In this document: positions 9,785 to 52,456 of the stretch, one piece after another
Layout: every line of letters begins with the position of its first letter
Numbering within the stretch: position 1 is the stretch's first letter
Source of the DNA: a virus
IMG/VR virus record: IMGVR_UViG_3300035698_034402
Span: 1-64,000 of that record
DNA length: 64,000 nucleotides
Direction: 5' to 3' (one strand)
Notes under the pieces: generated by a model
Databases searched by the model: none
What the model was told of the DNA's origin: nothing
Seen by the model: only the letters and a program-made list of their open reading frames with translations
Program-made: the position numbers and the translations under genes

Positions 9785-11311
9785 ATGTTCGCTAAATCTT
9801 CTGACCCGTTCGATAAACCGACTCCTCAGGAATCTGAGCGGATTACTAACAAATATGCTTTGAAGGACTTGAGCTTAGCTCTGCTGTTGGGTCTTATGGG
9901 CGGCGCTGGTGGGCGGGCGGGCGTCGGGGTCTACGGTAATGTTGCCCAGAATCTTCGGCGGCGGCGGCAGAAAGAGGAAGATGAGAGGCGCGGGTCTCGT
10001 GAGTTTAGTTTGTTGGCCAAGTCCTCCGCTGAAGAAAAGATGCAACCCCCACGATGGTTTTACCCCAGTATTATTTTGGGTACTCCAGCGGCCGCGTATG
10101 CTGGTTGGGCAGGAACCGGCAAGCTGATGAAGGGCTATCGGAAAATGCGTGATCGCCAGGAACTGGATAAAGCCAAGCAGGAATTTGAGGACGCTTTGGC
10201 CGAGGAGCAGGCGCTGCGATCCAAGTTTGCTGTGGATCTTAATACTTTGTCCGATGCGTGGTCCGCCGGTGATATTGATGAAGAGCTGAAAAAGGAAGCG
10301 AACGGGATAACCGAGGGCGTTGCTCCGTTTCTTTACACTTTAGCGGCGCTAATGGGCTTGGTGGGCACCGGGACGGGCTGGAAGCTGCTTGGGGAATCTT
10401 CAGAGGAAAAGGGTGTTCGAGCGTACCGGGAAGCTGCGCGTCGGCGGCGGGTAGCTCGTCCGGCTAGTCTGGTGGCGCGCCCTCCGGAACTCACTACTGC
10501 GTTGGCTGCGCGTTCTAAGTCTACCTCCGTATCGCCGCAGACGGAGCGGACAAATGAGCCGGAGGTTGAAGAACCTTACGGCGAAAAAGAGGTGAACAAG
10601 ATGGCGGGCTCTAAGCAAGCTAACATACTTTCTGCGCTGCGTAACGTTGGAAAAGGAATGGGGTACGTCGGGAGAGGTGCGGGACGTTTGGGCAAGAGAT
10701 TTGCGTTGCCTGCGGCGGCGGCTGGGGGCGTTGCAACGCCTGCGATGCTTTACGGCACGGAAGCTGGACGTGGCTTCGTAGGGAATAGGACGATGCAGTC
10801 GCTGCAAGAGAATCCCGAGATGGTCATGCAGGGAATCGGCTCGATGATGCAGAAGAACCCTGAGACGATCATGCAGGGAATCGGCTCGGTAATGAAAGAT
10901 AATCCCAAAGAGATTGCCCAGGGAGTGGGCTCTGCGGTACGGCAGCATCCTGGGGAGATTCTGGGCGGGCTTGGTTCTGCAGCTAAAAATTGGATATCCA
11001 ATCTGGATCCCAGCCTGAGGAATGCTTTGATCGCCGCGGTGCTCGGTACGCTAGGCGGTGGGCTCTATGGCGGATTGTCGGGGCGCGGGACCGGCCGGAG
11101 TGCGATGATCGGCATGTTGCTGTCTGCGCTACTAGGCTACGGCGGGACCAAACTGAAACAAAGTCCTTACGCACAAAACATGTGGCAACAGCACGTGGCT
11201 AGACCGGGGCAGGATCTTTGGCGGCGATACGGCCCTACGTTGGGGCAGGGATCTCCTACGTCCCCGCCTGCGTCTCCGCAGGAACCGAAGCCTTTGAGCA
11301 CGATGCCGTAA
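9785..11311 (+). CDS. Hypothetical membrane-active internal protein with tandem repeats, 508 aa
   Basis: No family recognised. It has several Gly/Ala-rich hydrophobic segments (near residues 30-48, 95-110, 177-200, and 408-450 with AAVLGTLGGGLYGGLSG). Charged helical linkers separate them. Residues about 345-405 hold four degenerate copies of a 14-residue repeat of the form NPExxMQGIGSxMQK, a probable amphipathic helix array. The C-terminus is Pro-rich. The pattern of glycine-zipper membrane segments plus amphipathic repeats resembles ejection or membrane-penetrating virion proteins in general style, not in sequence. It starts 2 bases after the preceding stop. Confidence 0.65.
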   Translation: MFAKSSDPFDKPTPQESERITNKYALKDLSLALLLGLMGGAGGRAGVGVYGNVAQNLRRRRQKEEDERRGSREFSLLAKSSAEEKMQPPRWFYPSIILGTPAAAYAGWAGTGKLMKGYRKMRDRQELDKAKQEFEDALAEEQALRSKFAVDLNTLSDAWSAGDIDEELKKEANGITEGVAPFLYTLAALMGLVGTGTGWKLLGESSEEKGVRAYREAARRRRVARPASLVARPPELTTALAARSKSTSVSPQTERTNEPEVEEPYGEKEVNKMAGSKQANILSALRNVGKGMGYVGRGAGRLGKRFALPAAAAGGVATPAMLYGTEAGRGFVGNRTMQSLQENPEMVMQGIGSMMQKNPETIMQGIGSVMKDNPKEIAQGVGSAVRQHPGEILGGLGSAAKNWISNLDPSLRNALIAAVLGTLGGGLYGGLSGRGTGRSAMIGMLLSALLGYGGTKLKQSPYAQNMWQQHVARPGQDLWRRYGPTLGQGSPTSPPASPQEPKPLSTMP

Positions 11312-39539: not shown

Positions 39540-42434
39540 ATGAGCTACGTTGTTCCCCAAGTCAAAGTGTTTCAGGAGTTCACGCAGACTCCCGCGGCCA
39601 TTACGAACCCGCTGTACGCGTTCATCGTCGGCCCGAATTTCTATCTATGCAAATATGCCGACGGTGAGGGGGAGCTGGGTCAATATGATCCGGATGCTGA
39701 TACCGCGTACAGCTGGCCGAATCGCCCCGCTGGAGCTGTTGTGGACCAGAGTTTCACCAAGGTGTACGTGAAGGACGCCTTGTTGCGCTTCTACAGCAAT
39801 ACCGCTGGAGACGTGTCCGACGAAATTCTGGCGGTGTATGGCTACAACAATCGCGTCCGGGCTACAGGTGTGAATTTTGCGGCTAACGGTACCACGTATC
39901 CGCGGGACACCGGATTGCCTGCTCGCGACGTCACCGTGGGCGACATCGCCCGGGTCTTCGCTAACGTGGGCGGTACTACTTACGAGCTGTGGTCTAAAAT
40001 TACCGCTCTTGTAGCGGATCAAGCTACCCCGGTAGTCGGCTCGGCAACCGCGGACTCCGACAATTCTCCCGATTACGCTGTTAACTGCTGTGGCGCGGCT
40101 AATGGGCTGGATAACGGGGCCGACGCTGCGGTATCAAACACCGGCACTGGCGGAGGGCTGCGCAGCATCGCTGTAATCGCTGATTCTGCCGGGTACGCTG
40201 GTGTCGTTGCGGGTTATCCGCGGGAGATTTACACCGTCGTGATCACCACGGCTTCCGTGGGCGGAGCTGGTGCTTTGGCTACGGTAACTAGCGGCAGCGG
40301 CACAGACGACGCCACGAGTGTGGCTATCGCGGCTACTGGCCAGGAAATCGGCTCCCGGGGGTTGACCTTCGATTGGGGCGGCTCCGGGGAATGGCGGGTC
40401 GGCGATACGTGGGTGATTTACGCGCGGCAGGACTTCCGGGCGCCGTCTCTGACCACCGGCGGAGGGTTCGACAGTGACGAGGACACCACCTACATTCTCG
40501 AAGTCACCGCGGGCGGTGCTGGCGGCAGCGCGCAGGTTTCGGTGTCCACGACCAATGGCCTGGACGTCAGCGGACCGCACACTGTGACCGAGGACGTACC
40601 GGTCACGATCGGCACTAAGGGGGTAACGGTCACTTTCGGTGACGGGGTGGGCGCGTGTTACGGCGACAGCTCGTCATCATCGGCGTCTCCCTGCCCGGCG
40701 CAATTCAACAAGGGCGACAAGTGGTATGTCGCGTGTACCGGTCGGGAGGGCGAGGGATACAAGACCCTGGTGTTAGCTGACGATTTGCCGTCGCAGCTAC
40801 GTGCGGCTTTCAACTCGCAAGGAGGCGCGGGCTCCAGTTCTTCGTTGGTTGAGGCTTCGGATCTCAATTTGCAGTTATTTGTCAGCCGGGATATCCAGCT
40901 GCCGCGAGAGAACTTCCCTGACGCGCCTAATGTCAACTGGACCCAGAACGCCACACAGATCATCCTGGAATCCGGCGCTAAGGTGTACCAGAGCGACTTC
41001 CTGGACGCCTTGGGCAACTCCGTGGCTTTGAATCTGGATGCGGATAGCGACGAACTCTACAGCATCTGTTATGTGGAGTACCGGGCGCTACTGCAGACCT
41101 ACGCTACAGATATTAATACCATCTCCAGCATTAGCGACGTGGTCACCACTTTGGGCGAAGTAAGCACGGATAATCCGCTGGCGCTGGCAGTCTGGTACGC
41201 TCTACGAAACTCCAACGGTACAGCGGTCAAGTACATGGCCGTGCCGACTAATGATCTCGCTGGTTACAGCTTGGCCCTGGATAAGGCCACCGGACGTCGG
41301 GACATCTACACCGTCGTACCGACGACGCGGAATGCTGTGATTCAGAATACTATTGCCGCCCACGTGGACGAGATGTCTGATGAAGAGAAGGGTCAATGGA
41401 GAATTGCCTTTTTCAACGGGGCTTCTTCGGCCATCGATCCTCTGGTTGCGGAGGACGAGTACTACCCGATCGGCGGTACTGACCAGTATGAAGCAGACGA
41501 CTTGCTGGCAACGATCGGCGATGATCCCGACGCTACAGGTACCCAGCACACCCGAGTGACTTGGGATCCGACGGCTTATCCGGCAGGTGGCGGATTCGTG
41601 GACAAGGGCGTCCGTGCGGGCGACTTGTTCCGAATTAATTACACCGGCGACGGATTTGGCGGCTCCAGCTACGATGACTACGTAATCGACTCCGTCTTGA
41701 GCAATCAGACCTTGAGGTTGGTCAGCGGACCCAGTTCTCCGATCACTGTGGCCAGAAAGTTCTCTGTGCAACGGAGCTTTACTCGGGCGGAGGAGGCCGC
41801 GGAATACGGCGAGAAGGCTGGATCGTTCTCCGCTCGCCGAGTTTACTACGTGTGGCCCGACGTGATCGAAGATGCTTCGGGAGTTCAGGTCGAAGGGGTC
41901 TATCTCTGTGCGGCGATCGCCGGGCTGATTTCCGGAGTTGTGCCGCAGCAGGGGCTAACCAACGTGGCCATCGAGGGGTTCAGCGACGTGACGCGGACCA
42001 CGGATTACATGGCCGAGTCGCAGCTGAACGCTATGGCCGGAGCGGGAGTGTGGGTCGTAGCCGAAGATCCGGATACCGGGCAGATCTACTCGCGGCACGA
42101 GGTAAGTACCTGTACTACCGACCTGAACTGTCGCGAGCTGATGGTAGTGAAGAACGTTGACGCTATCTCGTATACATTCTTGAATCAGCTGGCGCCGTAT
42201 ATCGGGCGGGCCAACGTGACTCCTCGCTTTCTGATCCAGCTGCGGCGGGCCGTTATGGGCACAGTGGATTACCTGAAGTCCAATGGCTCGACTCCGAGTC
42301 TCGGAGGGCAGTTGATCGAGGCCGAGTTGACCGAATTGCGGCAGCATGCGGTGAATCTGGATCACGTGATTGCGACTCTTAGTATCACGGTGCCCTACCC
42401 GCTCAACGTCGTGAGCCTGCATTTGGTCATCTGA
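39540..42434 (+). CDS. Contractile tail sheath protein, 964 aa
   Basis: Forms the contractile outer tube. The start (MSYVVPQVKVFQEF) and the C-terminal domain are typical of sheath proteins: GAGVWVVAEDPDTGQIYSRHE, ELMVVKNVDAISYTFLNQL, and a final ATLSITVPYPLNVVSLHLVI. It is longer than ordinary sheaths (about 400-660 residues). The extra length is in the middle, with beta-rich, Gly/Ser-rich inserted domains (about 240-440, including SSSSSASPCPA) that could decorate the sheath surface. It places the phage among myoviruses. Confidence 0.85.
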   Translation: MSYVVPQVKVFQEFTQTPAAITNPLYAFIVGPNFYLCKYADGEGELGQYDPDADTAYSWPNRPAGAVVDQSFTKVYVKDALLRFYSNTAGDVSDEILAVYGYNNRVRATGVNFAANGTTYPRDTGLPARDVTVGDIARVFANVGGTTYELWSKITALVADQATPVVGSATADSDNSPDYAVNCCGAANGLDNGADAAVSNTGTGGGLRSIAVIADSAGYAGVVAGYPREIYTVVITTASVGGAGALATVTSGSGTDDATSVAIAATGQEIGSRGLTFDWGGSGEWRVGDTWVIYARQDFRAPSLTTGGGFDSDEDTTYILEVTAGGAGGSAQVSVSTTNGLDVSGPHTVTEDVPVTIGTKGVTVTFGDGVGACYGDSSSSSASPCPAQFNKGDKWYVACTGREGEGYKTLVLADDLPSQLRAAFNSQGGAGSSSSLVEASDLNLQLFVSRDIQLPRENFPDAPNVNWTQNATQIILESGAKVYQSDFLDALGNSVALNLDADSDELYSICYVEYRALLQTYATDINTISSISDVVTTLGEVSTDNPLALAVWYALRNSNGTAVKYMAVPTNDLAGYSLALDKATGRRDIYTVVPTTRNAVIQNTIAAHVDEMSDEEKGQWRIAFFNGASSAIDPLVAEDEYYPIGGTDQYEADDLLATIGDDPDATGTQHTRVTWDPTAYPAGGGFVDKGVRAGDLFRINYTGDGFGGSSYDDYVIDSVLSNQTLRLVSGPSSPITVARKFSVQRSFTRAEEAAEYGEKAGSFSARRVYYVWPDVIEDASGVQVEGVYLCAAIAGLISGVVPQQGLTNVAIEGFSDVTRTTDYMAESQLNAMAGAGVWVVAEDPDTGQIYSRHEVSTCTTDLNCRELMVVKNVDAISYTFLNQLAPYIGRANVTPRFLIQLRRAVMGTVDYLKSNGSTPSLGGQLIEAELTELRQHAVNLDHVIATLSITVPYPLNVVSLHLVI

Positions 42435-43141: not shown

Positions 43142-45979
43142 ATGAGCGGTCTTTCCGGAATGGGACTTGGGGTCGCAGCACTTCGTCAGGATCGCGCAGC
43201 ACATCCTATCCTTTCGATGCCGCCCGGCACTTTGTTCGTTTCCGAAGTGGTCGATTGCATTGCTCATTACGGCACGGTCAAGGTAAATCCGGCGGTCGGT
43301 GGCGTCACCACCGGGGTGCCCTTGTGGGGGTCCAGTGGCATCTGGGGTCCGCGACGGATCGGCGCCGCTTACCCGCCGCATACTAAAGTGCTCTGTTTGC
43401 GCCCCCCAGGCGAAGACTTCTGTTATGTGCTGGGGGCGATTCCTCACTGGATCATTTCTCCCCAGTTCAATATGGTTCCCGATTGGCTAGTGATGGGCTC
43501 GATGTCCGGATTGGGGTTCGATCGGGTCCATTCCGGGCTTACTGAGCGTCCCAAAGGAGTCTCCCCGGACATCAATTTCGGCGCCGGGCGCCCAGCTGAC
43601 GAATTGCCCGGAGATGACGGGTTCATTAATGAGTTAGGGGTGAGCTACGGGATGGGGCGTTTGATGGCCTGGTTACGCGCCAGCCATTTTTGTGGCGTCG
43701 AAGCCCACTGGGTAGACGATCTGCTGCGGCTCAAGGGAGTGAATCTGGAGATAATGACCTCGTCCAGTGAGCTGCGCGCTTTCAACGACGAGGGAGAATT
43801 TACCGAGCTGTTGCGCTGGGGTCCGTATCCTTGGGAAACAACGGGGATTTACCTTCCGAACACGGATTTCACGAAACACGGGCACGGGCGGTGGGAGACC
43901 GCAGCGGACGGGATCAACCGAGCCGGTCGTGAGCCTCAAGAGGACGACCAGGCGGGTATCTGGAGAGTACAACGTTTCCGCGGGTACCTGGGGGATTTGG
44001 AACGTACCGTTGTGGCCTTGCCAAAGGCCAGCACCTTCGCCGAAGGCGTGGAGCAAATGTCCCGGGACACCGTGTTGCCGGGACTATTGGACGCAGGCTT
44101 CGGAATCGACGGCGCTTACCATATCCGTTCAGCTAAGAGAGTGCTCTTCGAGAAAACTATAGTGCTACCTGTCCCCAAGGAGAAGATTGCTCCTGACGAC
44201 CCGACAGGAGACAGCGCCGACGACTACAAAGCTGCGGGCATCTTTGGCACCGGCGAGGACCACACCAAGCAAGAGCCTGAACTACTCGACGATCAAGCCG
44301 GGCTGCGCTCTTTCTTGTTCTACGAGCGTCACGCTTTGCTTTACGGCTACAACGCCAATCTTCCTTTCATCCGGCACACCAAAGACTGGTTTCTACCTGA
44401 AGAACTGGATGTGTTGAATGAGCTGGGGGTCCGTTCCGGGCTCTACTACTCGGACGAACCAGTCGATGACATAGCGTTCTGGATGCCGCTGCCTGCCAGC
44501 GTGGACCTGGACGTGGACCATCGAGGGAAGGCTAAATACTTTGTCGGACGAGCTTTGCAGTTGTTCGACGAGGACGGCAGCATCATTTTGGAGGACGCTT
44601 ACGGCAGCCAGATTCGTATGGAGGGCGGTAACATTATCCTGGCCGCGCGGAACGACGTGCTTTTGCAGCCGGGTCGGAATGCCGTACTGATGCCTCCGAA
44701 CGACCTGATTCTACGTTGCGGTCACTCTGCGGATCTAACAGCCAGCCACGGGGACGTGCGGATCAAAGCCCAGGGCAATTTGATGATGGCCGCAGTGGAC
44801 AAGGGAGTGCTCATCGAAGCCCGAGACAGCGGCGGCACTCCGGATTGGGAACAGCTGGGCGAGGGCGTCGAGAGTCGGGGGGTATTGGTCAAGGCGCTCA
44901 ATTCCAGCGTGATTACCATGAGCAAGGACGCCTACTTCCGTGCCGGGGCTTTGGAAAGTGACCGGACGTCGGGGCAGTTGCATCTGGACGCGGGAGAAGG
45001 CGCTGGGCCGCTGTATCTGCACGGCGGGACAATTGCCGGGCGGGCGCTAACTCGGGTCGAGTTCGTTACCGGCACTACGGGGGAGTCAGAGAACGCGGTG
45101 TCCATGGACCTGACTACCTCCGAGTTTCTCCTGGGCGGCAAGGCCTTGCTCAACGCCACGATCGGGGCGGCCAACGTTAATCTGACCCACGAGGAGTATG
45201 ACACCAGTCTCAAGGTTATCGGCAGCATTTTCGCCTCTAAGGATGCGTGGCTTGGCGGCGGGTTGGTAGTCGGCGGGATCATTCGTGGCAATGGGCAGTT
45301 GTTGCTGCATGGTAGTATTACCGCTGACGGAAACGGCCTGTTTACGGGATCGCTCGTTGCCCATGGTATTGCAGCTGATACCGGGGCTCCGTTCTTGGCG
45401 TCGACCGGCGATTCGTTTAACGCTTCAGAGCAGGTCCCGCCGGACCATCCAACGATGGGCCAGGATATTACGGATTCCGAGGCTGAGCGCTCGCGTAACG
45501 CGTTACAGCAAGCGAGAGTTAGCGACAACCAGGCAATAACTCAGCTCAAAGAGGATCTTTACGGGGACGACAGTCGGTTCGCCAGCGAGATGTTAGTAGA
45601 TCAGGCGGTATTCTCTTTCCGTACTCCGGACGATTACGGCACAGCGCAGGATTTCGTCTGGTTCGAGTCGCGTTGGCAGGAGCTAAACCGCAAGATTTTC
45701 GGGAAAACTGCGGTCTGGGACGAGATCGCTTTACGTACGCCGGGGACTGGGCGGCAGACCATGCCCTATCCTGGTTACGAGGTTTGGGGAGAGGAAACTG
45801 CCTTTCGTATACTGGAAAGCAAGTTGTTCGACTTCTCGACGGGTACGGCCAAACGACGCACTGGTGGAGAAGATGCGGGGGCGGAAACTAGTCAGCCGGG
45901 GATCGAGGACGACCTGGCGCTAGGCGAAGTGCAGAGGCGGACTCTTGCTGATGCTTACATTGTGACCTTACAGAACTGA
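43142..45979 (+). CDS. Baseplate spike/hub protein (probable), 945 aa
   Basis: The N-terminal region has an OB-fold-like start (AHYGTVKVNPAVGG, HTKVLCLRPPGEDFCYVLG). After a long middle domain, residues about 480-560 contain short repetitive strands (GSQIRMEGGNIILAARNDVLLQ, ADLTASHGDVRIKAQGNLMMAA) as in the gp5/VgrG beta-helix spike that punctures the host envelope. The C-terminal 150 residues are helical and carry the copy-6 palindrome at SRNALQ. Position after the tube fits. No lysozyme domain is evident. An IsrB unit is inserted directly downstream. Confidence 0.6.
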   Translation: MSGLSGMGLGVAALRQDRAAHPILSMPPGTLFVSEVVDCIAHYGTVKVNPAVGGVTTGVPLWGSSGIWGPRRIGAAYPPHTKVLCLRPPGEDFCYVLGAIPHWIISPQFNMVPDWLVMGSMSGLGFDRVHSGLTERPKGVSPDINFGAGRPADELPGDDGFINELGVSYGMGRLMAWLRASHFCGVEAHWVDDLLRLKGVNLEIMTSSSELRAFNDEGEFTELLRWGPYPWETTGIYLPNTDFTKHGHGRWETAADGINRAGREPQEDDQAGIWRVQRFRGYLGDLERTVVALPKASTFAEGVEQMSRDTVLPGLLDAGFGIDGAYHIRSAKRVLFEKTIVLPVPKEKIAPDDPTGDSADDYKAAGIFGTGEDHTKQEPELLDDQAGLRSFLFYERHALLYGYNANLPFIRHTKDWFLPEELDVLNELGVRSGLYYSDEPVDDIAFWMPLPASVDLDVDHRGKAKYFVGRALQLFDEDGSIILEDAYGSQIRMEGGNIILAARNDVLLQPGRNAVLMPPNDLILRCGHSADLTASHGDVRIKAQGNLMMAAVDKGVLIEARDSGGTPDWEQLGEGVESRGVLVKALNSSVITMSKDAYFRAGALESDRTSGQLHLDAGEGAGPLYLHGGTIAGRALTRVEFVTGTTGESENAVSMDLTTSEFLLGGKALLNATIGAANVNLTHEEYDTSLKVIGSIFASKDAWLGGGLVVGGIIRGNGQLLLHGSITADGNGLFTGSLVAHGIAADTGAPFLASTGDSFNASEQVPPDHPTMGQDITDSEAERSRNALQQARVSDNQAITQLKEDLYGDDSRFASEMLVDQAVFSFRTPDDYGTAQDFVWFESRWQELNRKIFGKTAVWDEIALRTPGTGRQTMPYPGYEVWGEETAFRILESKLFDFSTGTAKRRTGGEDAGAETSQPGIEDDLALGEVQRRTLADAYIVTLQN
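45495..45506. repeat. Palindrome GTAACGCGTTAC, copy 6
   Basis: Exact copy near the 3' end of the spike gene, read as R-N-A-L-Q. Confidence 0.8.
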
Positions 45980-46227
45980 AATCCTGGAGAACGCCAATCG
46001 ACTGCCGCCAATTTTTTGACGGTATGAAAGAAGGAGGAAGCCAACCTCCGACTTTCATCGTAAGAGTCGATTAGACAGGAGATCTTCGAGGTCTCAACTA
46101 GCCACCTGGACGTGGCAGTCCGAAGTATGATGCTGGATGCCTCCCTAGTCTGCATCCTCTACGGTGGTGAGTGTCGAAGGGATTAGTTGCCGTCTCCGAA
46201 AGGAGACGAGAGGAGAGGTAACTCTCA
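45980..46227 (+). ncRNA. Omega RNA of the IsrB system (probable)
   Basis: A 248-base non-coding stretch directly upstream of isrB, where omega RNAs of IscB/IsrB loci are encoded. It is densely folded. AATCGACT (45996-46003) pairs with AGTCGATT (46065-46072) enclosing a long hairpin (ATGAAAG...GGAGG / CCTCC...CTTTCAT, 46024-46058). Further stems: GAGATC/GGTCTC with a TTCGA loop (46079-46095), GCCAC/GTGGC (46101-46116), GGATGC/GCATCC (46135-46157), and CGTCTCC-GAAA-GGAGACG (46191-46208). The guide would be at the 5' end, in or near the end of the spike gene. No ORF with a start is visible here. Confidence 0.8.
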
Positions 46228-47274
46228 ATGTTTGTACCTGTAATTAGCAGTACAGAAAATCCTTTAATGCCTTGTCATCCGGCAAGGGCCAGGGAACTTC
46301 TGGCGAAGGGTAAAGCTGTACGGAAGTTTGACCGAGGATTGTTTTATCTCCGATTGGCCGATCGTGAAGATGGAAAGGTTCAACCGGTGACTGTAGGTAT
46401 CGATCCTGGCTCCAAGAAGGAAGCTTTTAGTGTCAAGTCCGAAGCTCATACCTATTTGAACATCCAAACGGATGCTGTGACTTGGGTTTCCAGACATATT
46501 AAATCCCGGAGAGAAGCCCGTAGAGCCCGGCGTTCTCGGAAGACTCCTTATCGGAAATGTCGCCGAAATCGAAGTGTCAAAAATCGGCTTCCTCCTTCAA
46601 CCCGAGCCCGTTGGGGCTGGAAACTGAGGATCTGCAATTGGTTGGCTCGAAGGTACCCGATTACAACTTTTGTAGTCGAGGACATTAAGGCTGTCTCTCG
46701 AAAAGGACAGCGCCGCTGGAATCGATCCTTCAGTCCTCTACAGATCGGCAAGAACTGGTTCTATAAAGAGCTGGAAAAGTTAGCTAAAGTCAAAACTTAC
46801 TTCGGTTATGAAACCAAGGAGTTTCGGGATTCTCTAGGTCTCAAGAAGATCAGTAAGAAGCTGTCGGATCGATTCGAGGCCCACTGTGTTGACAGCTGGG
46901 TTCTGGCAAACTCCGAAACAGGAGGACATCTTCGGCCAGATGATACCGAGATAATGTATGTCGTTCCTCTGCAATTTCATCGCCGACAACTTCATCGTTT
47001 CTTGTCAAAAAATGGAGAGCGTAAACGTTACGGGGGGACAATTAGCCTGGGATTTAAGAGGGGGACTTGGGTAAAACATCCAAAGCACGGGGTGGGATAT
47101 ATCGGCGGCTGCAAAAATGAGAGGCTTAGTTTACATGGACTTTGGGGCGGAGAGAGACTTTGTCAGAATGCAAGACCCGAGGACTGTGTTATGCTGACTC
47201 GGTGTTCTTGGCGGGTGCGCAAGGGCGAGGTATCCCGAGAGAGCTTGAGTGGGAAATCGCAGAGAGCAGCGTGA
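46228..47274 (+). CDS. isrB: IsrB, RNA-guided nickase of the IscB/TnpB-like group, 348 aa
   Basis: The N-terminal PLMP domain (P12-L-M-P15 in NPLMPCHPARARELL) is diagnostic of the IscB/IsrB group. RuvC-I GIDPGSK holds D59. An Arg-rich bridge helix follows at about 93-115. RuvC-II VVEDIKA holds E151, and RuvC-III FEAHCVDSWVLA holds H219 and D222, so the catalytic set is intact. The chain runs directly from bridge helix to RuvC-II with no HNH insertion, which separates IsrB (about 350 residues) from IscB (about 400-500). The C-terminal part, with FHRRQLHRF, RYGGTISLGFKRG and GLWGGERLCQNARPED, matches the target-adjacent-motif-recognising domain of these proteins. IsrB enzymes nick DNA guided by omega RNA. 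The upstream RNA gene supports activity. Confidence 0.92.
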   Translation: MFVPVISSTENPLMPCHPARARELLAKGKAVRKFDRGLFYLRLADREDGKVQPVTVGIDPGSKKEAFSVKSEAHTYLNIQTDAVTWVSRHIKSRREARRARRSRKTPYRKCRRNRSVKNRLPPSTRARWGWKLRICNWLARRYPITTFVVEDIKAVSRKGQRRWNRSFSPLQIGKNWFYKELEKLAKVKTYFGYETKEFRDSLGLKKISKKLSDRFEAHCVDSWVLANSETGGHLRPDDTEIMYVVPLQFHRRQLHRFLSKNGERKRYGGTISLGFKRGTWVKHPKHGVGYIGGCKNERLSLHGLWGGERLCQNARPEDCVMLTRCSWRVRKGEVSRESLSGKSQRAA

Positions 47275-47299
47275 TTTTGGTACTTTAAGAGGCAGAATA

Positions 47300-48340
47300 A
47301 TGAAGAAACAAGGCCATCTGAGTAAATTTCCTGAGGAGCAGCTGGTCGAAGCCAAGAGTTTGTCTGGCAGATTTGATCGTGCGGACCAGTCTCTCTCCCC
47401 TCTGGAACGTGCGGTAGCGGAGCACCAAGGCCTGTTGAACGAAGAGGGGCAGATTAAACCGGAGCACCTGCGGTCACAGGTGACGGCCCCAGAGTTAAAT
47501 TTGCCGCCGGGGGTCACTGCTCCCGTGCCGCTGGAAGATCTAAAGCCGGAGATTGCCGCGCAGGTGGAAGAGCAGGTGCAGGAGATTCGAGGCGAAGCGG
47601 CGCCGTCAGCGGACGTCGACGCCGACAAGCAGGTCAGTGCGCCGCTGCCCCCACCGGACTTCAGCGACGGCGAGCCGGAGGACCCGGGGCTTCCACCGGG
47701 GGATCCCGGAGAGATTAAAGGCGCCGGAAGCAAGGTAAGCATTGATGTAGGCGCCGTGGTGGCCAACGCTCTGGAGCCGGTGCGATGCAGCCATTGCGGC
47801 TGGGACATCCGCGGAGCCTTTCAGAGCCCCCCGTTTACCGAAGACGACAAACTGGCTTTTGTTCGCCATATCATGAGCAAGACTGGTCGTTTCTACAAGA
47901 CTTTCGAGGTATTTGACGGCCAGTTGAAAGTAACTTTGAGATCCCGTTCTCAGCGCGAATCGGAGATGATCCTGGATCGGGCGCGTAAGGATCTGCACGA
48001 GGAAGCTGTAACCAGCATGGGAGATATGGCCGCTCAGATGCAGCGTTATCACATGTCGGCGGCGGTGCACAAGTTGGCCCCCGCTGTGGACGCAGGAGAG
48101 ATAGAGAAATTCCCGTTCCTGCAGGATGTAAATCCTCCGGAGGCCTATGACAGCGATCCCCAGCCGGAGTTTGATGCAGTGAAAGCAGTTGATAATGAAG
48201 TGTTCAGCAGCGGGCGGCCGACTGCTTTGTATACGGTAGTTTTCGCGCTGTGGTTGGAGTTCGAGAAGCTCTATGGTTGGTTCTCATCCAAGGCCCATGA
48301 ACCGGATTTTTGGAAAGCAGCCGCTGGGGATCACTCTTAG
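47300..48340 (+). CDS. Tail assembly chaperone, short form (probable), 346 aa
   Basis: The N-terminal 130 residues are acidic/Pro-rich and probably disordered. The C-terminal part holds a CSHCGWD motif near residue 172 and a helical domain (EDDKLAFVRHIMSKTGRFYKTF, RSQRESEMILDRARKDLHEE). Its place just before a -1-frame overlapping ORF and the tape-measure gene is the arrangement of tail chaperone pairs. The ATG at 47300 has an AAGAGG site; an upstream GTG at 47249 lies inside isrB and is rejected. Confidence 0.6.
   Translation: MKKQGHLSKFPEEQLVEAKSLSGRFDRADQSLSPLERAVAEHQGLLNEEGQIKPEHLRSQVTAPELNLPPGVTAPVPLEDLKPEIAAQVEEQVQEIRGEAAPSADVDADKQVSAPLPPPDFSDGEPEDPGLPPGDPGEIKGAGSKVSIDVGAVVANALEPVRCSHCGWDIRGAFQSPPFTEDDKLAFVRHIMSKTGRFYKTFEVFDGQLKVTLRSRSQRESEMILDRARKDLHEEAVTSMGDMAAQMQRYHMSAAVHKLAPAVDAGEIEKFPFLQDVNPPEAYDSDPQPEFDAVKAVDNEVFSSGRPTALYTVVFALWLEFEKLYGWFSSKAHEPDFWKAAAGDHS
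48301..48340 (+). promoter_or_regulatory. Possible programmed -1 frameshift window
   Basis: The -1 frame is open from 48301, after a TGA at 48298, and the zero frame ends at 48340. Within it, GAT-TTT-TGG contains a run of five T, the best slippery position visible. A shift here would give DF-LESSRWGSLLV and continue into the downstream ORF. It is not a perfect X-XXY-YYZ heptamer. Confidence 0.4.
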
Positions 48341-48760: not shown

Positions 48761-51700
48761 ATGAATCCAGCCGATCAAGCTCAAATTGACACTCTATTGC
48801 GGGCGCTAGGTCACCAGCCCTTCGGTACGCCGGGCTTCGGACCGGCTTTCGGCGATTTACCTGCTATGTATCCTATGCCGCCGGGGGCCTCGTTCCTGGG
48901 TGGCGGTACTTTCTTTGGCCCTCAGCTTCCCTCTCCACATCACCTATCTTTCGGCGCTGGCCCATTCGGACAATTCGCCGGGATGGCGATGGAAAATACG
49001 ATGGCGGCCCGCGGATACCAGTACTTTCCGCGGGGGGTCAATGTTGGGGATGTGCTGCAAGGCCGTCAGTTTGAGCGGAACATGGAGAGCGTGGCCGGGT
49101 TGGGGCGCGAGTTCGACGAGCAGCGCTGGGCTAGGGTTATCGAGGCCGGGCTAAGCCAGTTTATGGACCGCCGCCCGGCAATGGCCCGGGCTGGCGCGTT
49201 GTCTGAAATGACTGCCGGGCCGATGTCCGCTCTCGGGCTCATGCGCCATTTGCCCGGCGGTTCTGCCGAGGACTTTGCCCGCAACATGTTCCTGGCCACG
49301 CAGAACATGCAGGACTACACCCGGACTACTTACGGGCTGGGACTGCCGGTTGGAGAAGCACAAGGCACGGTGCGCCAACTGATGGACTTCTTCATGCCGG
49401 TGTCTGGTGTCGTTAGCCCTCGACGAACCCGGGGGATGAAACTGGGGGACATCGGACAAATGGGCGCTGCTCTGACCAGTTTCGGCCTATTACGAACTGA
49501 TGTAGAGCCCGGTCAAATTGAAGAAATGGCCAAACAGCTGCAGGTTGATCCAGCAACTCTTACCGCTCCGGAGACGGAAAGACTGCGTGGGGCAGCACGT
49601 GCGACCAACATGGGGCAACAGCTCCGGGCTTACTCCGAGGTCATGGGCACGATGCGGGAGATCATGGGGTCTCCTGATGCTCCGATTCCGCAGATCATGA
49701 ATCAGCTTCAGCAGCTCACCGGCGGCATGTTCCAACAAATGGATCCCGGGCAATTGCAGAATCTGCTTTACAAGGTCAAGGAGACTGCTCGGGCCACTAA
49801 TGTGTCCATGGATGCGATGATGTTAGTGCTTCAGGAGGGGTCCAACATGGCCCAGCAGATGGGTTTACCGGGGCTGTCCGGTGCTCAGATGACTTTGGGG
49901 GCCGTCGGCGCTACGGTAGCCGCTCAAACGGTAACTACCGGGCCGTTCCCCGGCCGTATGGACCCGATGGAGCATTTGAACTTGCAGAATCAGATGATGG
50001 CCCGCGGGCGAGTGTCCCCCGCGGCGCGGGTCAATGTCCAGATTATGCAAATGTTGGAAGAGGTCGAGGCAGGATCGACTTTAACGCCTACAGAGCAGAC
50101 TGTAGTTAATCAATTGAGACAACGGGCCGGAGTCGGGGAGTTCGACGAACGGAATTGGGGAGAGGCCGCTGGACTGCTTGAGCAATTGAACATATCGCCT
50201 GCGCAGTCTATGCGGCGGATGCGTAGTAATGTCGGTGTACAACCTTGGCTGATGGAGCACCCTGACTTCGATACGGTAATCCGCGGTCGGTCATACGGAG
50301 AAACCGAAGAAGATTATTTTCAGGAGCTGCGATTGAATTTCGCTAGGGGAGGCACCGGCGATGTCCACGAGGAACTGGCACGTGCTGCCGTAACAAACAA
50401 CATGAGCGTGGCAGATTTGGTTAATCAATTGGGCACTGCAGTCTTCGAGAGCGGGTCTGGCGAAATCGGGGAGATGCGGAACTGGCTGACTAATCAAGGA
50501 ATAGACTTGCAAGATATCAATTTGGAGAGATTCTACGGCGAGGCCGAATCACAAGGGGGAGTACAGTCAGTTTATCGAAAACGTTCGATAACCAAGGGGC
50601 GGCGCCAGTTTGCTCAAATGTTCGGGAGAAAGGGACGGCGGGCCGCTACGGAGATGGCCCGGGTTCGTGATCAGGGGGTAGCGGGGCAGAAACTATTGTC
50701 GGACATCAACGCCGAGTTCCGGGGTGGGGCGTTGGAAAGGGTCATGGGAGCGATCGCTGGAGGGGCAGGCGCTCGGGGCACTGCCTTGCAGCGGATCGAG
50801 GCGATATCCATGGCCGCATTCGGCTTCAAGTCCACCGAGGAGCTTCAACAAGCAGTCGGTAAAGACTGGGTTAGAGATATGACCAACTTGAACACTCGGC
50901 TGCAAGAGCTGCAGGGCAGTAATAATCCGGAAGACATTAGAGAAGCGGATAAAATTCGGGAGGAAATGAGGGATCTTAATGTGCGCGCGAAGGATCTCGC
51001 TCCAGGAGGGCTCTACGCTGGACTGGACCGCACCCGAGGTGCTCGGCAGGTTCTGGAAGAGCTGGACCAGGATGCAATAGATGCGGCGAGGACCTTGGCT
51101 GACGATACCAATACCGACCAGGAGCGCATCCAAGCCGCTCAGCTGCTGACGGGGCGCATGGGAGAGATCGACTCCGAGGCTTACGAAGCCATGGCCGGGG
51201 AGATGCGCGGCCCTGGCGGCAAAGCTTTTCGTCACATGACCGGGATAGTTCAAGCGGACGTCTGGAGTTTGCGGGGCAGGTTACGGCAGTTGGATGACCC
51301 CAATCTCACCGATGACGAACGCAAACAAATGACCAGGGAAATCCTGGGTGAAGCTTCGAGGACCGTAGGATACGGAGCGCAGGAAATCAGGGCGGCTGCA
51401 AGGTCGCAGGAACGTAGCTTGCGGGGGCGGGCGCGGTTGCAGCCGCAGTCGCTGCGCGGTCGGGCCGCGTTGTATAACGAATTCATGCAGAGCTACAACG
51501 AGTTTTTGAACGCCGATCCGGACAAGGCTATCGATGCTACCAGGCGCCTGGTCGATATGAGTTTCGATACTGATGCCTTATTTACTATGACGCCCGAGGG
51601 GGAGATTGTACCCGATGAGAATCTGATCAAGCAGCTTACTTTCATGAACGAGGATGTTTACGGCAAGAGGGAGGCGTCTGCAAAGTACGCCAATAAAGTG

Positions 51701-52456
51701 CGGAATAATCTTACCCGCATGCTCGAAATTCAACAGACGTTGAAGCTTGCTCCCCTTCTTGATATGTCGCCTGAGTCTATTGCAGATCTGCAGGAAGAGA
51801 TGAAGAAGTTAGGCACGATTGACGGTAAGCCGATAAATCTCAGGGCTCTTCCGGGGATGGATGAGCAGACACAGGAGGAGTATCGCGTGGGCCTCGGCGC
51901 TGGTGGCGCAATTAAGGGACAGATCGAGGCACTTGAACAGCTTTTGGATACCCCGATTCCGAAAGGCAAGGAGTCTGCTGCTCGACAGGCCCGGGCTCTA
52001 GGACGCATGGTCAGTGTCATGGCGAAGGATAAGCGGTTATACGGTGACAAAGGCCTGCTTACGAAAAAAGCTAAGGGAGTTATTTTCGGGAAATATTCTG
52101 AAGACGGAGAGCTGGTCGATCCGGACCGGGCATTTGCGCTTATACAGCAATTTGAGGAGATTGGACAGCTGGGACAGCAAGGGATGTCCACGCAGGAACA
52201 GGGTAAGGCTTTGTCAAGTATGCTGAAGGAATGGCAGGCCGAAGACGAAGCTGCTAAGCCGGACAAAGGCAAAGACGGCAAGGGCGGAAAAGGGCAGATC
52301 GAAATAAAGTTCATGCGTGGAGGAGAGGAAATTACAGATTCGCTTGTTGTCGAAGTCGGGGCTGGAGGAGAGGAAAATGTCGGGCGTGAGGCCACGCAGA
52401 CTGGTAGTCGAACGGCGCAGATTTTCGGTCCGTTGCTGGGCAGCCTTGGTTTTTGA
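48761..52456 (+). CDS. Tape measure protein (probable), 1231 aa
   Basis: The longest uninterrupted virion ORF after the RNA polymerase gene, directly after the chaperone pair. After a Pro/Gly-rich N-terminus (1-75), it is mostly helical with Gln/Met/Arg-rich stretches (QIMNQLQQLTGGMFQQM, RRRQ-like segments, LNTRLQELQGSNNPED). The C-terminus has a Lys/Gly linker (KPDKGKDGKGGKG) and a short beta domain. Length and helicity fit a tail-length ruler. I see no lysozyme or peptidase motif in it. It starts one base after the previous stop. Confidence 0.75.
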   Translation: MNPADQAQIDTLLRALGHQPFGTPGFGPAFGDLPAMYPMPPGASFLGGGTFFGPQLPSPHHLSFGAGPFGQFAGMAMENTMAARGYQYFPRGVNVGDVLQGRQFERNMESVAGLGREFDEQRWARVIEAGLSQFMDRRPAMARAGALSEMTAGPMSALGLMRHLPGGSAEDFARNMFLATQNMQDYTRTTYGLGLPVGEAQGTVRQLMDFFMPVSGVVSPRRTRGMKLGDIGQMGAALTSFGLLRTDVEPGQIEEMAKQLQVDPATLTAPETERLRGAARATNMGQQLRAYSEVMGTMREIMGSPDAPIPQIMNQLQQLTGGMFQQMDPGQLQNLLYKVKETARATNVSMDAMMLVLQEGSNMAQQMGLPGLSGAQMTLGAVGATVAAQTVTTGPFPGRMDPMEHLNLQNQMMARGRVSPAARVNVQIMQMLEEVEAGSTLTPTEQTVVNQLRQRAGVGEFDERNWGEAAGLLEQLNISPAQSMRRMRSNVGVQPWLMEHPDFDTVIRGRSYGETEEDYFQELRLNFARGGTGDVHEELARAAVTNNMSVADLVNQLGTAVFESGSGEIGEMRNWLTNQGIDLQDINLERFYGEAESQGGVQSVYRKRSITKGRRQFAQMFGRKGRRAATEMARVRDQGVAGQKLLSDINAEFRGGALERVMGAIAGGAGARGTALQRIEAISMAAFGFKSTEELQQAVGKDWVRDMTNLNTRLQELQGSNNPEDIREADKIREEMRDLNVRAKDLAPGGLYAGLDRTRGARQVLEELDQDAIDAARTLADDTNTDQERIQAAQLLTGRMGEIDSEAYEAMAGEMRGPGGKAFRHMTGIVQADVWSLRGRLRQLDDPNLTDDERKQMTREILGEASRTVGYGAQEIRAAARSQERSLRGRARLQPQSLRGRAALYNEFMQSYNEFLNADPDKAIDATRRLVDMSFDTDALFTMTPEGEIVPDENLIKQLTFMNEDVYGKREASAKYANKVRNNLTRMLEIQQTLKLAPLLDMSPESIADLQEEMKKLGTIDGKPINLRALPGMDEQTQEEYRVGLGAGGAIKGQIEALEQLLDTPIPKGKESAARQARALGRMVSVMAKDKRLYGDKGLLTKKAKGVIFGKYSEDGELVDPDRAFALIQQFEEIGQLGQQGMSTQEQGKALSSMLKEWQAEDEAAKPDKGKDGKGGKGQIEIKFMRGGEEITDSLVVEVGAGGEENVGREATQTGSRTAQIFGPLLGSLGF

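What the first reader, a model, noticed from the sequence alone, without database searches (positions are those of the whole stretch)
45980..47274. IsrB with a complete omega-RNA region inside the tail operon
The protein has PLMP, bridge helix, full RuvC set and target-recognition domain, and no HNH. Upstream there are at least five stems in 248 bases. IsrB is a rare ancestral-type RNA-guided nickase. Finding it in phage virion genes raises the questions of spread by phage, inter-phage competition or gene regulation.
Basis: partly seen in the sequence, partly recalled or inferred. Interest (0 to 1): 0.87.

Follow-up and report, generated by a model that had tools for sequence, protein, structure and literature searches.

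The report
RNA-guided nickase element in phage tail genes
A small mobile element that encodes an RNA-guided DNA-nicking enzyme (IsrB) and its own guide RNA sits between two tail genes of this phage; it belongs to a known kind, but comparing about 70 phage copies shows that such elements lodge just in front of the start codons of other phage genes and seem to use the start codon as their recognition signal.

Summary
Window 46228-47274 encodes a 348-aa IsrB (best solved relative DtIsrB, E=5e-37 over residues 3-325), with all RuvC catalytic residues, the two TAM-reading residues and no HNH. The 231 bases upstream are a genuine omega-RNA: a covariance model built from 31 other loci, window left out, finds it at E=8e-20, its only hit in 64 kb. 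Comparison with ~65 loci places the scaffold start at 45997 and the guide at 45977-45996. The right end is most likely 47299, so the TAM (ATGA, 47300) is the start codon of the next tail gene. A distant relative phage has the same two genes adjacent without the insert. IsrB is not rare in phages: at least 68 distinct copies were compared. Across these, the element abuts ATGA/ATGG start codons of phage genes, the TAM-reading residue covaries with the fourth TAM base, and a Shine-Dalgarno-like motif plus hairpin precedes the start codon. This copy has lost the matched end hairpins and no TnpA is in its record, so I favour retention by RNA-guided nicking (homing-like) over active transposition; that step is inferred. 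New member of a known kind; the start-codon pattern is the interesting part.

The parts
45977..45996 (+). predicted 20-nt guide (TGAAATCCTGGAGAACGCCA); spans the stop codon of the upstream tail gene and the Shine-Dalgarno of the downstream one
   Evidence: sequence left of the sharp, conserved scaffold boundary, unrelated between loci; guide length taken from DtIsrB (PMC9581776)
45997..46227 (+). omega-RNA scaffold (231 nt)
   Evidence: conserved left boundary; RNA fold z=-3.38; held-out covariance model hit inside it
46003..46024 (+). SL1, the left-end hairpin (short, with a G-U pair, weaker than in relatives)
   Evidence: folds; compare the alignments
46025..46057 (+). SL2-like hairpin of the guide-adaptor region
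   Evidence: folds
46069..46185 (+). omega-RNA core (nexus helices and pseudoknot) matched by the covariance model
   Evidence: E=7.7e-20, 86.5 bits; covariation in homologues
46191..46208 (+). 3'-terminal hairpin of the omega-RNA, followed by the Shine-Dalgarno of IsrB (GGAGAGG 46212-46218)
   Evidence: folds; sequence
46228..47274 (+). IsrB, RNA-guided nickase, 348 aa
47287..47292 (+). AAGAGG, probable Shine-Dalgarno supplied by the right end of the element for the next gene
   Evidence: 7 nt before the ATG; inferred
47300..47303 (+). ATGA: predicted TAM and start codon of the downstream tail gene (alternative TAM GTGA at 47271-47274)
   Evidence: pattern across loci; NTGA is the published IsrB TAM (PMC9581776)
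47300..48340 (+). downstream tail-region gene (346 aa) whose start codon abuts the element
   Evidence: orthologue L006:10809-11786 starts 6 nt after the upstream gene's stop
43142..45979 (+). upstream tail-region gene (945 aa); its stop codon begins the guide
   Evidence: 53% identical orthologue L006:7974-10802

Best explanation
This is a compact OMEGA element (omega-RNA plus IsrB nickase, about 1.3 kb, 45997-47299) inserted at the junction of two co-oriented phage tail genes, right before the start codon of the second. Shown: IsrB with its catalytic and TAM-reading residues, a conserved omega-RNA, an empty homologous junction in a relative phage, and the same placement (TAM = start codon) in many phage copies. 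Inferred: the transcript from the tail operon yields an omega-RNA whose first 20 nt are the upstream junction sequence; IsrB nicks the same junction in relatives that lack the insert (junction + ATGA), and repair from the insert-bearing genome copies the element in, an RNA-guided homing/retention cycle. Its own genome is not cut because the insert separates guide match from TAM. The downstream gene stays translated because the right end carries a Shine-Dalgarno. This copy has lost the matched end hairpins and has no transposase in the record, so it probably no longer moves by TnpA.
For: Protein identity over full length and invariant active-site residues in the loci compared. Held-out covariance hit; 25 of 30 pairs with two-sided change, 94.8% of cells paired against 34-44% when slid. 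Sharp left boundary with unrelated left flanks in ~65 loci. Start-codon placement: 27 of 32 rule-called right-end TAMs open an ORF of 50+ codons against 34% of control ATGR (p=8e-9); all 28 loci with Q at position 313 have NTGA and all 3 with R/K have NTGG (p=2e-4), the direction of the Q326R experiment of Hirano 2022 (PMC9581776). Downstream genes include DNA polymerase, helicase/primase, endolysin, head morphogenesis, baseplate hub. Empty junction in L006. End hairpins matched in 32 of 68 loci but not in the window; no Y1 transposase in the record. Gene drive by the related TnpB on plasmids is published (PMC11870625).
Against: No expression, nicking or homing data. No close relative with the exact uninserted target was found, and L006 has ATGC, not NTGA, at its junction, so homing targets are not shown to exist. 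The right end is not certain: GTGA at 47271 is an alternative, and alignment to L006 does not separate the two (80.3 against 79.8). The record is partial, so a TnpA could lie outside it. Start-codon placement could simply reflect survival of insertions that break no gene.
Confidence: 0.6

Rival explanations
1. An ordinary IS200/IS605-type passenger: the element arrived by TnpA acting in trans and IsrB merely prevents its loss on excision; it has no role for the phage and is on the way to decay.
For: IsrB is classed with IS200/IS605 transposons (PMC9581776); paired end hairpins in 32 of 68 relatives; Y1 transposase above cut-off in 8 of 33 related records; the window copy has degenerate ends.
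Against: The window ORF, active site, TAM residues and omega-RNA core are intact although the ends are degenerate, which suggests selection on nicking rather than on transposition. No transposase in the 85-kb record.
Confidence: 0.25
2. A phage-domesticated effector: the guide directs IsrB to rival phages or host DNA to suppress them, or regulates the tail operon by binding near the start codon.
For: Position in the tail operon; the guide spans a Shine-Dalgarno and start-codon junction.
Against: The guide is simply the local flank, as in every other locus. The only full match in the own record is the flank itself. The 20 exact 16-base matches elsewhere are at about the number expected by chance and in unrelated phages.
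Confidence: 0.1
3. Inactive relic with no function.
For: End hairpins degenerate, SL1 weak.
Against: Intact 348-codon ORF, invariant catalytic residues, omega-RNA matching a model made without it at E=8e-20.
Confidence: 0.05

Closest known systems
IsrB OMEGA nickases (DtIsrB, PDB 8dmb; Hirano et al. 2022, PMC9581776)
   Same: PLMP, split RuvC with bridge helix, no HNH, TAM-interacting R and Q residues, ~350 aa, a 5' guide followed by a long scaffold RNA ending at the ORF, NTGA-type TAM.
   Different: Scaffold 231 nt rather than about 262 nt; short SL1; only moderate sequence similarity (131 bits); sits in a phage tail operon.
K2IsrB from a viral metagenome contig (PMC9581776)
   Same: IsrB of viral origin, shown to nick with an NTG TAM.
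   Different: Sequence not available here for direct comparison.
RRXRR/IsrB-like proteins of Microcystis phages LMM01 and MaMV
   Same: IsrB-like protein in an isolated phage.
   Different: 34% identity, other genomic place; their RNAs not examined.
HEARO RNA / IscB
   Same: RNA upstream of an RRXRR protein, element next to an NTGA-like motif (from memory for HEARO).
   Different: IscB has HNH; Rfam's RNA families do not match this RNA or ten relatives.
Nicking homing endonucleases of phages (I-HmuI type; own knowledge) and TnpB gene drive on plasmids (PMC11870625)
   Same: Proposed way of spreading: cut or nick the uninserted allele and be copied in by repair.
   Different: Here target choice would be RNA-guided and by a nickase; not shown.

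Membership tests
IsrB (OMEGA nickase) | Full-length similarity to a proven IsrB | tested here: met
   8dmb E=4.8e-37, residues 3-325
IsrB (OMEGA nickase) | PLMP domain, bridge helix and RuvC I-III residues | tested here: met
   PLMP motif at 12-15, Arg-rich bridge helix, D59, E151, H219, D222 in alignment
IsrB (OMEGA nickase) | No HNH domain | tested here: met
   No HNH family in Pfam or NCBIfam; IscB model matches residues 5-154 only; 348 aa
IsrB (OMEGA nickase) | Upstream omega-RNA with conserved fold | tested here: met
   Held-out covariance model E=7.7e-20; covariation
IsrB (OMEGA nickase) | TAM-reading residues and NTGA TAM at the element's right edge | tested here: met
   R310/Q313 align with DtIsrB R323/Q326; ATGA at 47300 and GTGA at 47271
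IsrB (OMEGA nickase) | RNA-guided nicking activity | not testable with these tools
   needs biochemistry
HEARO RNA / IscB | Match to the Rfam HEARO model; HNH in the protein | tested here: not met
Active IS200/IS605-type mobile element | Matched subterminal hairpins at both ends | tested here: not met
   window p=0.89; 32 of 68 loci p<0.05
Active IS200/IS605-type mobile element | Y1 transposase in cis or elsewhere in the genome | tested here: inconclusive
   none in the 84,988-b record, which may be incomplete
RNA-guided homing element | Uninserted allele carrying guide match + TAM in a relative | tested here: inconclusive
   L006 is uninserted but too diverged and has ATGC; no other relative found

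The most novel reading that the evidence does not exclude
Phage IsrB elements are RNA-guided homing elements specialised for gene starts: their TAM is the start codon, the fourth TAM base is read by a residue that covaries with it, and the right end carries a Shine-Dalgarno followed by a hairpin that brings it 8 nt from the start codon, so that insertion between a ribosome site and its start codon leaves essential phage genes translated. The window copy is a settled form that lost the transposition hairpins, acquired a plain Shine-Dalgarno and persists by nicking uninserted relatives.
Probability: 0.3. Interest if true: 0.78.

Novelty: new member of a known kind. Interest (0 to 1): 0.55.

Why it matters
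What IsrB nickases do in nature is not known. Phages give a setting with many genomes per cell and frequent recombination, where an RNA-guided nick could copy an element into uninserted rivals. If the start-codon TAM and the Shine-Dalgarno hairpin are real functions, they explain how such elements sit in front of polymerase, helicase, endolysin and tail genes without harm, and they make the natural target of each guide readable from sequence.

Tried and rejected
Rfam search for HEARO or other families: nothing, and nothing in ten related IsrB loci either, so uninformative. Search for nearer relatives of this phage by three tail proteins: only L006 found; no match among 50,697 phage records. 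Search for uninserted alleles of two other IsrB phages by exact junction patterns: none. Search for the window's own target: 20 exact 16-base matches in IMG/VR, 13-17 of 20 guide bases, none in a phage with homologous tail genes, about chance. Single-strand DNA fold of the window's right end: no better than shuffled. Global alignment to L006 to choose between right ends 47270 and 47299: not decisive. A looser automatic call of right ends gave a noisier but concordant Q/A, R-K/G association (p=0.001). Conserved GACTAG pairing with CTAGTC in the omega-RNA was considered and dropped because it clashes with a helix better supported by covariation.

Full report
What is there. The window is part of an 84,988-base virus record. 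At 46228-47274 (+) lies one intact ORF of 348 aa. Its best solved relative is DtIsrB (PDB 8dmb), E=4.8e-37 over residues 3-325; IscB proteins match only the N-terminal part. Pfam gives RRXRR (117.5 bits), NCBIfam's IscB model matches residues 5-154 and stays under its cut-off, and no HNH is found. D59, E151, H219 and D222 (RuvC) are present, as are R310 and Q313, which align with the DtIsrB residues R323 and Q326 that read the G and A of the TAM (PMC9581776).

The omega-RNA. I collected IsrB loci from IMG/VR viral contigs with an alignment query and aligned the sequence upstream of the ORFs. In about 65 loci the conserved block begins at the same place, G/A-TCAA..ACC, while everything to the left is locus-specific. 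That marks the start of the scaffold, at 45997 in the window, and makes the preceding 20 bases the guide. From 31 of these loci, window excluded, I built a covariance model of the core. It finds 46069-46185 in the window with 86.5 bits, E=7.7e-20, and nothing else in 64 kb up to E=10. The structure is real in the homologues: 25 of 30 pairs have changes on both sides, 94.8% of cells pair (34-44% if partners are slid by 1-3 columns), covariation score 0.694 against 0.09-0.16; a four-pair pseudoknot helix is included. The window scaffold 45997-46227 folds 3.4 standard deviations better than shuffles, with a closing helix, SL1, SL2, nexus and terminal hairpin. Rfam has no matching model; ten other IsrB loci do not match either.

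Where it sits. The flanking genes are phage tail genes: a tail sheath at 39540 by PHROGs, and a distant relative phage, L006 (216 kb), carries orthologues of both flanking genes (53% and 49% identity) in the same order with 6 bases between them and no insert. So the element entered a gene junction.

The right end and the start codon. In relatives the right end is a two-tier hairpin followed by 8+-1 nt and then ATGA or ATGG. By a fixed rule (stem of 5 or more bp, gap 6-16), 32 loci could be called; 27 of these TAMs begin an ORF of at least 50 codons, against 34% of control ATGR sites in the same contigs (p=8e-9). The fourth TAM base follows the residue aligned with DtIsrB Q326: Q with A in 28 of 28, R or K with G in 3 of 3 (p=2e-4); a looser automatic call gave 19:2 and 0:4 (p=0.001). 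Hirano et al. showed that Q326R in DtIsrB admits NTGG, so the association is what a functional TAM predicts. Sequences are related by descent, so the p-values are only a guide; R/K occurs in several of the compared copies with different flanks. Several downstream genes are core phage genes: head morphogenesis (L012), thymidylate kinase (L018), baseplate hub (L027), endolysin (L047), DNA polymerase (L070), helicase/primase (L076).

For the window this gives ATGA at 47300, the start codon of the next tail gene, as the likely TAM, and 45997-47299 as the element. The joined flanks read GGAGAACGCCA-ATG, like GGAG..ACGCAG-ATG in L006. GTGA at 47271, overlapping the IsrB stop, is an alternative that I cannot exclude; a global alignment to L006 does not separate them. 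I put the first at about 75%.

Keeping the next gene translated. Insertion between a Shine-Dalgarno and its start codon separates them by 1.3 kb. In 28 of 33 hairpin-bearing loci a GGAGG-like motif lies directly 5' of the outer hairpin stem, so that with the hairpin looped out it is about 8 nt from the ATG. The arginine codon that contains this motif (in the conserved Ser-Trp-Arg) is AGG/AGA in 42 of 54 against 42.5% for other arginines (p=1e-7), and where the codon is not AGR or lies elsewhere (L010, L020, L034, L053) a separate AAGGAG-like motif precedes the stem. The motif could instead serve transposition; this is a lead, not a result. In the window the hairpin is absent and a plain AAGAGG stands 7 nt before the ATG.

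Mobility. In 32 of 68 loci the left-end hairpin sequence recurs at the right end, as expected of IS200/IS605-type ends; in the window it does not (p=0.89). No Y1 transposase is in the record, though the record may be incomplete. Hirano et al. found SL1 dispensable for nicking and proposed a role in mobility (PMC9581776). The copy thus has a worn transposition apparatus and an intact nickase and omega-RNA.

Mechanism. The best-supported reading is a selfish or resident element kept by RNA-guided nicking of the uninserted junction, followed by copying through repair. Insertion splits guide match from TAM, so the carrier is immune. The related TnpB has been shown to act as a gene drive for its insertion sequence on plasmids (PMC11870625), and nicking homing endonucleases are known in phages (own knowledge). 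No homing target was found in the collections I could search, so this step is inference.

Known or new. IsrB as a family, its TAM and a viral-metagenome member (K2IsrB) are published (PMC9581776); phage members are present but unnamed in PHROGs (phrog_32617) and in Microcystis phages. In the held literature I found no report of start-codon TAMs, natural Q/R-A/G covariation or a Shine-Dalgarno hairpin at the right end, but the HEARO paper of 2009 is not held and I did not read Altae-Tran 2021 or Kapitonov 2015, so I do not claim priority. From memory, HEARO elements were described as lying before ATGA/GTGA.

Noticed in passing
L073:3007-3143: An omega-RNA matched by the model (E=2e-11) with no IsrB behind it (next ORF is a DnaJ-like protein), in a phage that has a full IsrB locus 1.9 kb on: a stand-alone omega-RNA that may act in trans.
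   Followed up: partly
L071, L075-L078, L082 (IMGVR 3300023213_000432 and 3300023212_000371); L004/L063/L068/L074 (IMGVR 3300034155_000052): Single phage genomes with three to four dispersed IsrB loci, each with its own guide.
   Followed up: no
L043:4818-4947 and 9998-10132(-); L066:2084-2218 and 7223-7352(-): Two IsrB omega-RNAs in opposite orientation about 5 kb apart in one phage.
   Followed up: no
L015, L053, L055, L010 left and right ends: The hairpins at the two ends of many elements have the same sequence and change together from element to element, as if read by one transposase.
   Followed up: partly
L006 (IMGVR 3300043219_000566): 216-kb phage with a tail module syntenic to the window at 34-74% protein identity; the only relative found in IMG/VR.
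   Followed up: partly
window 48761-52456: 1231-aa tail-region protein (tape-measure position) without any Pfam or PHROGs match.
   Followed up: no
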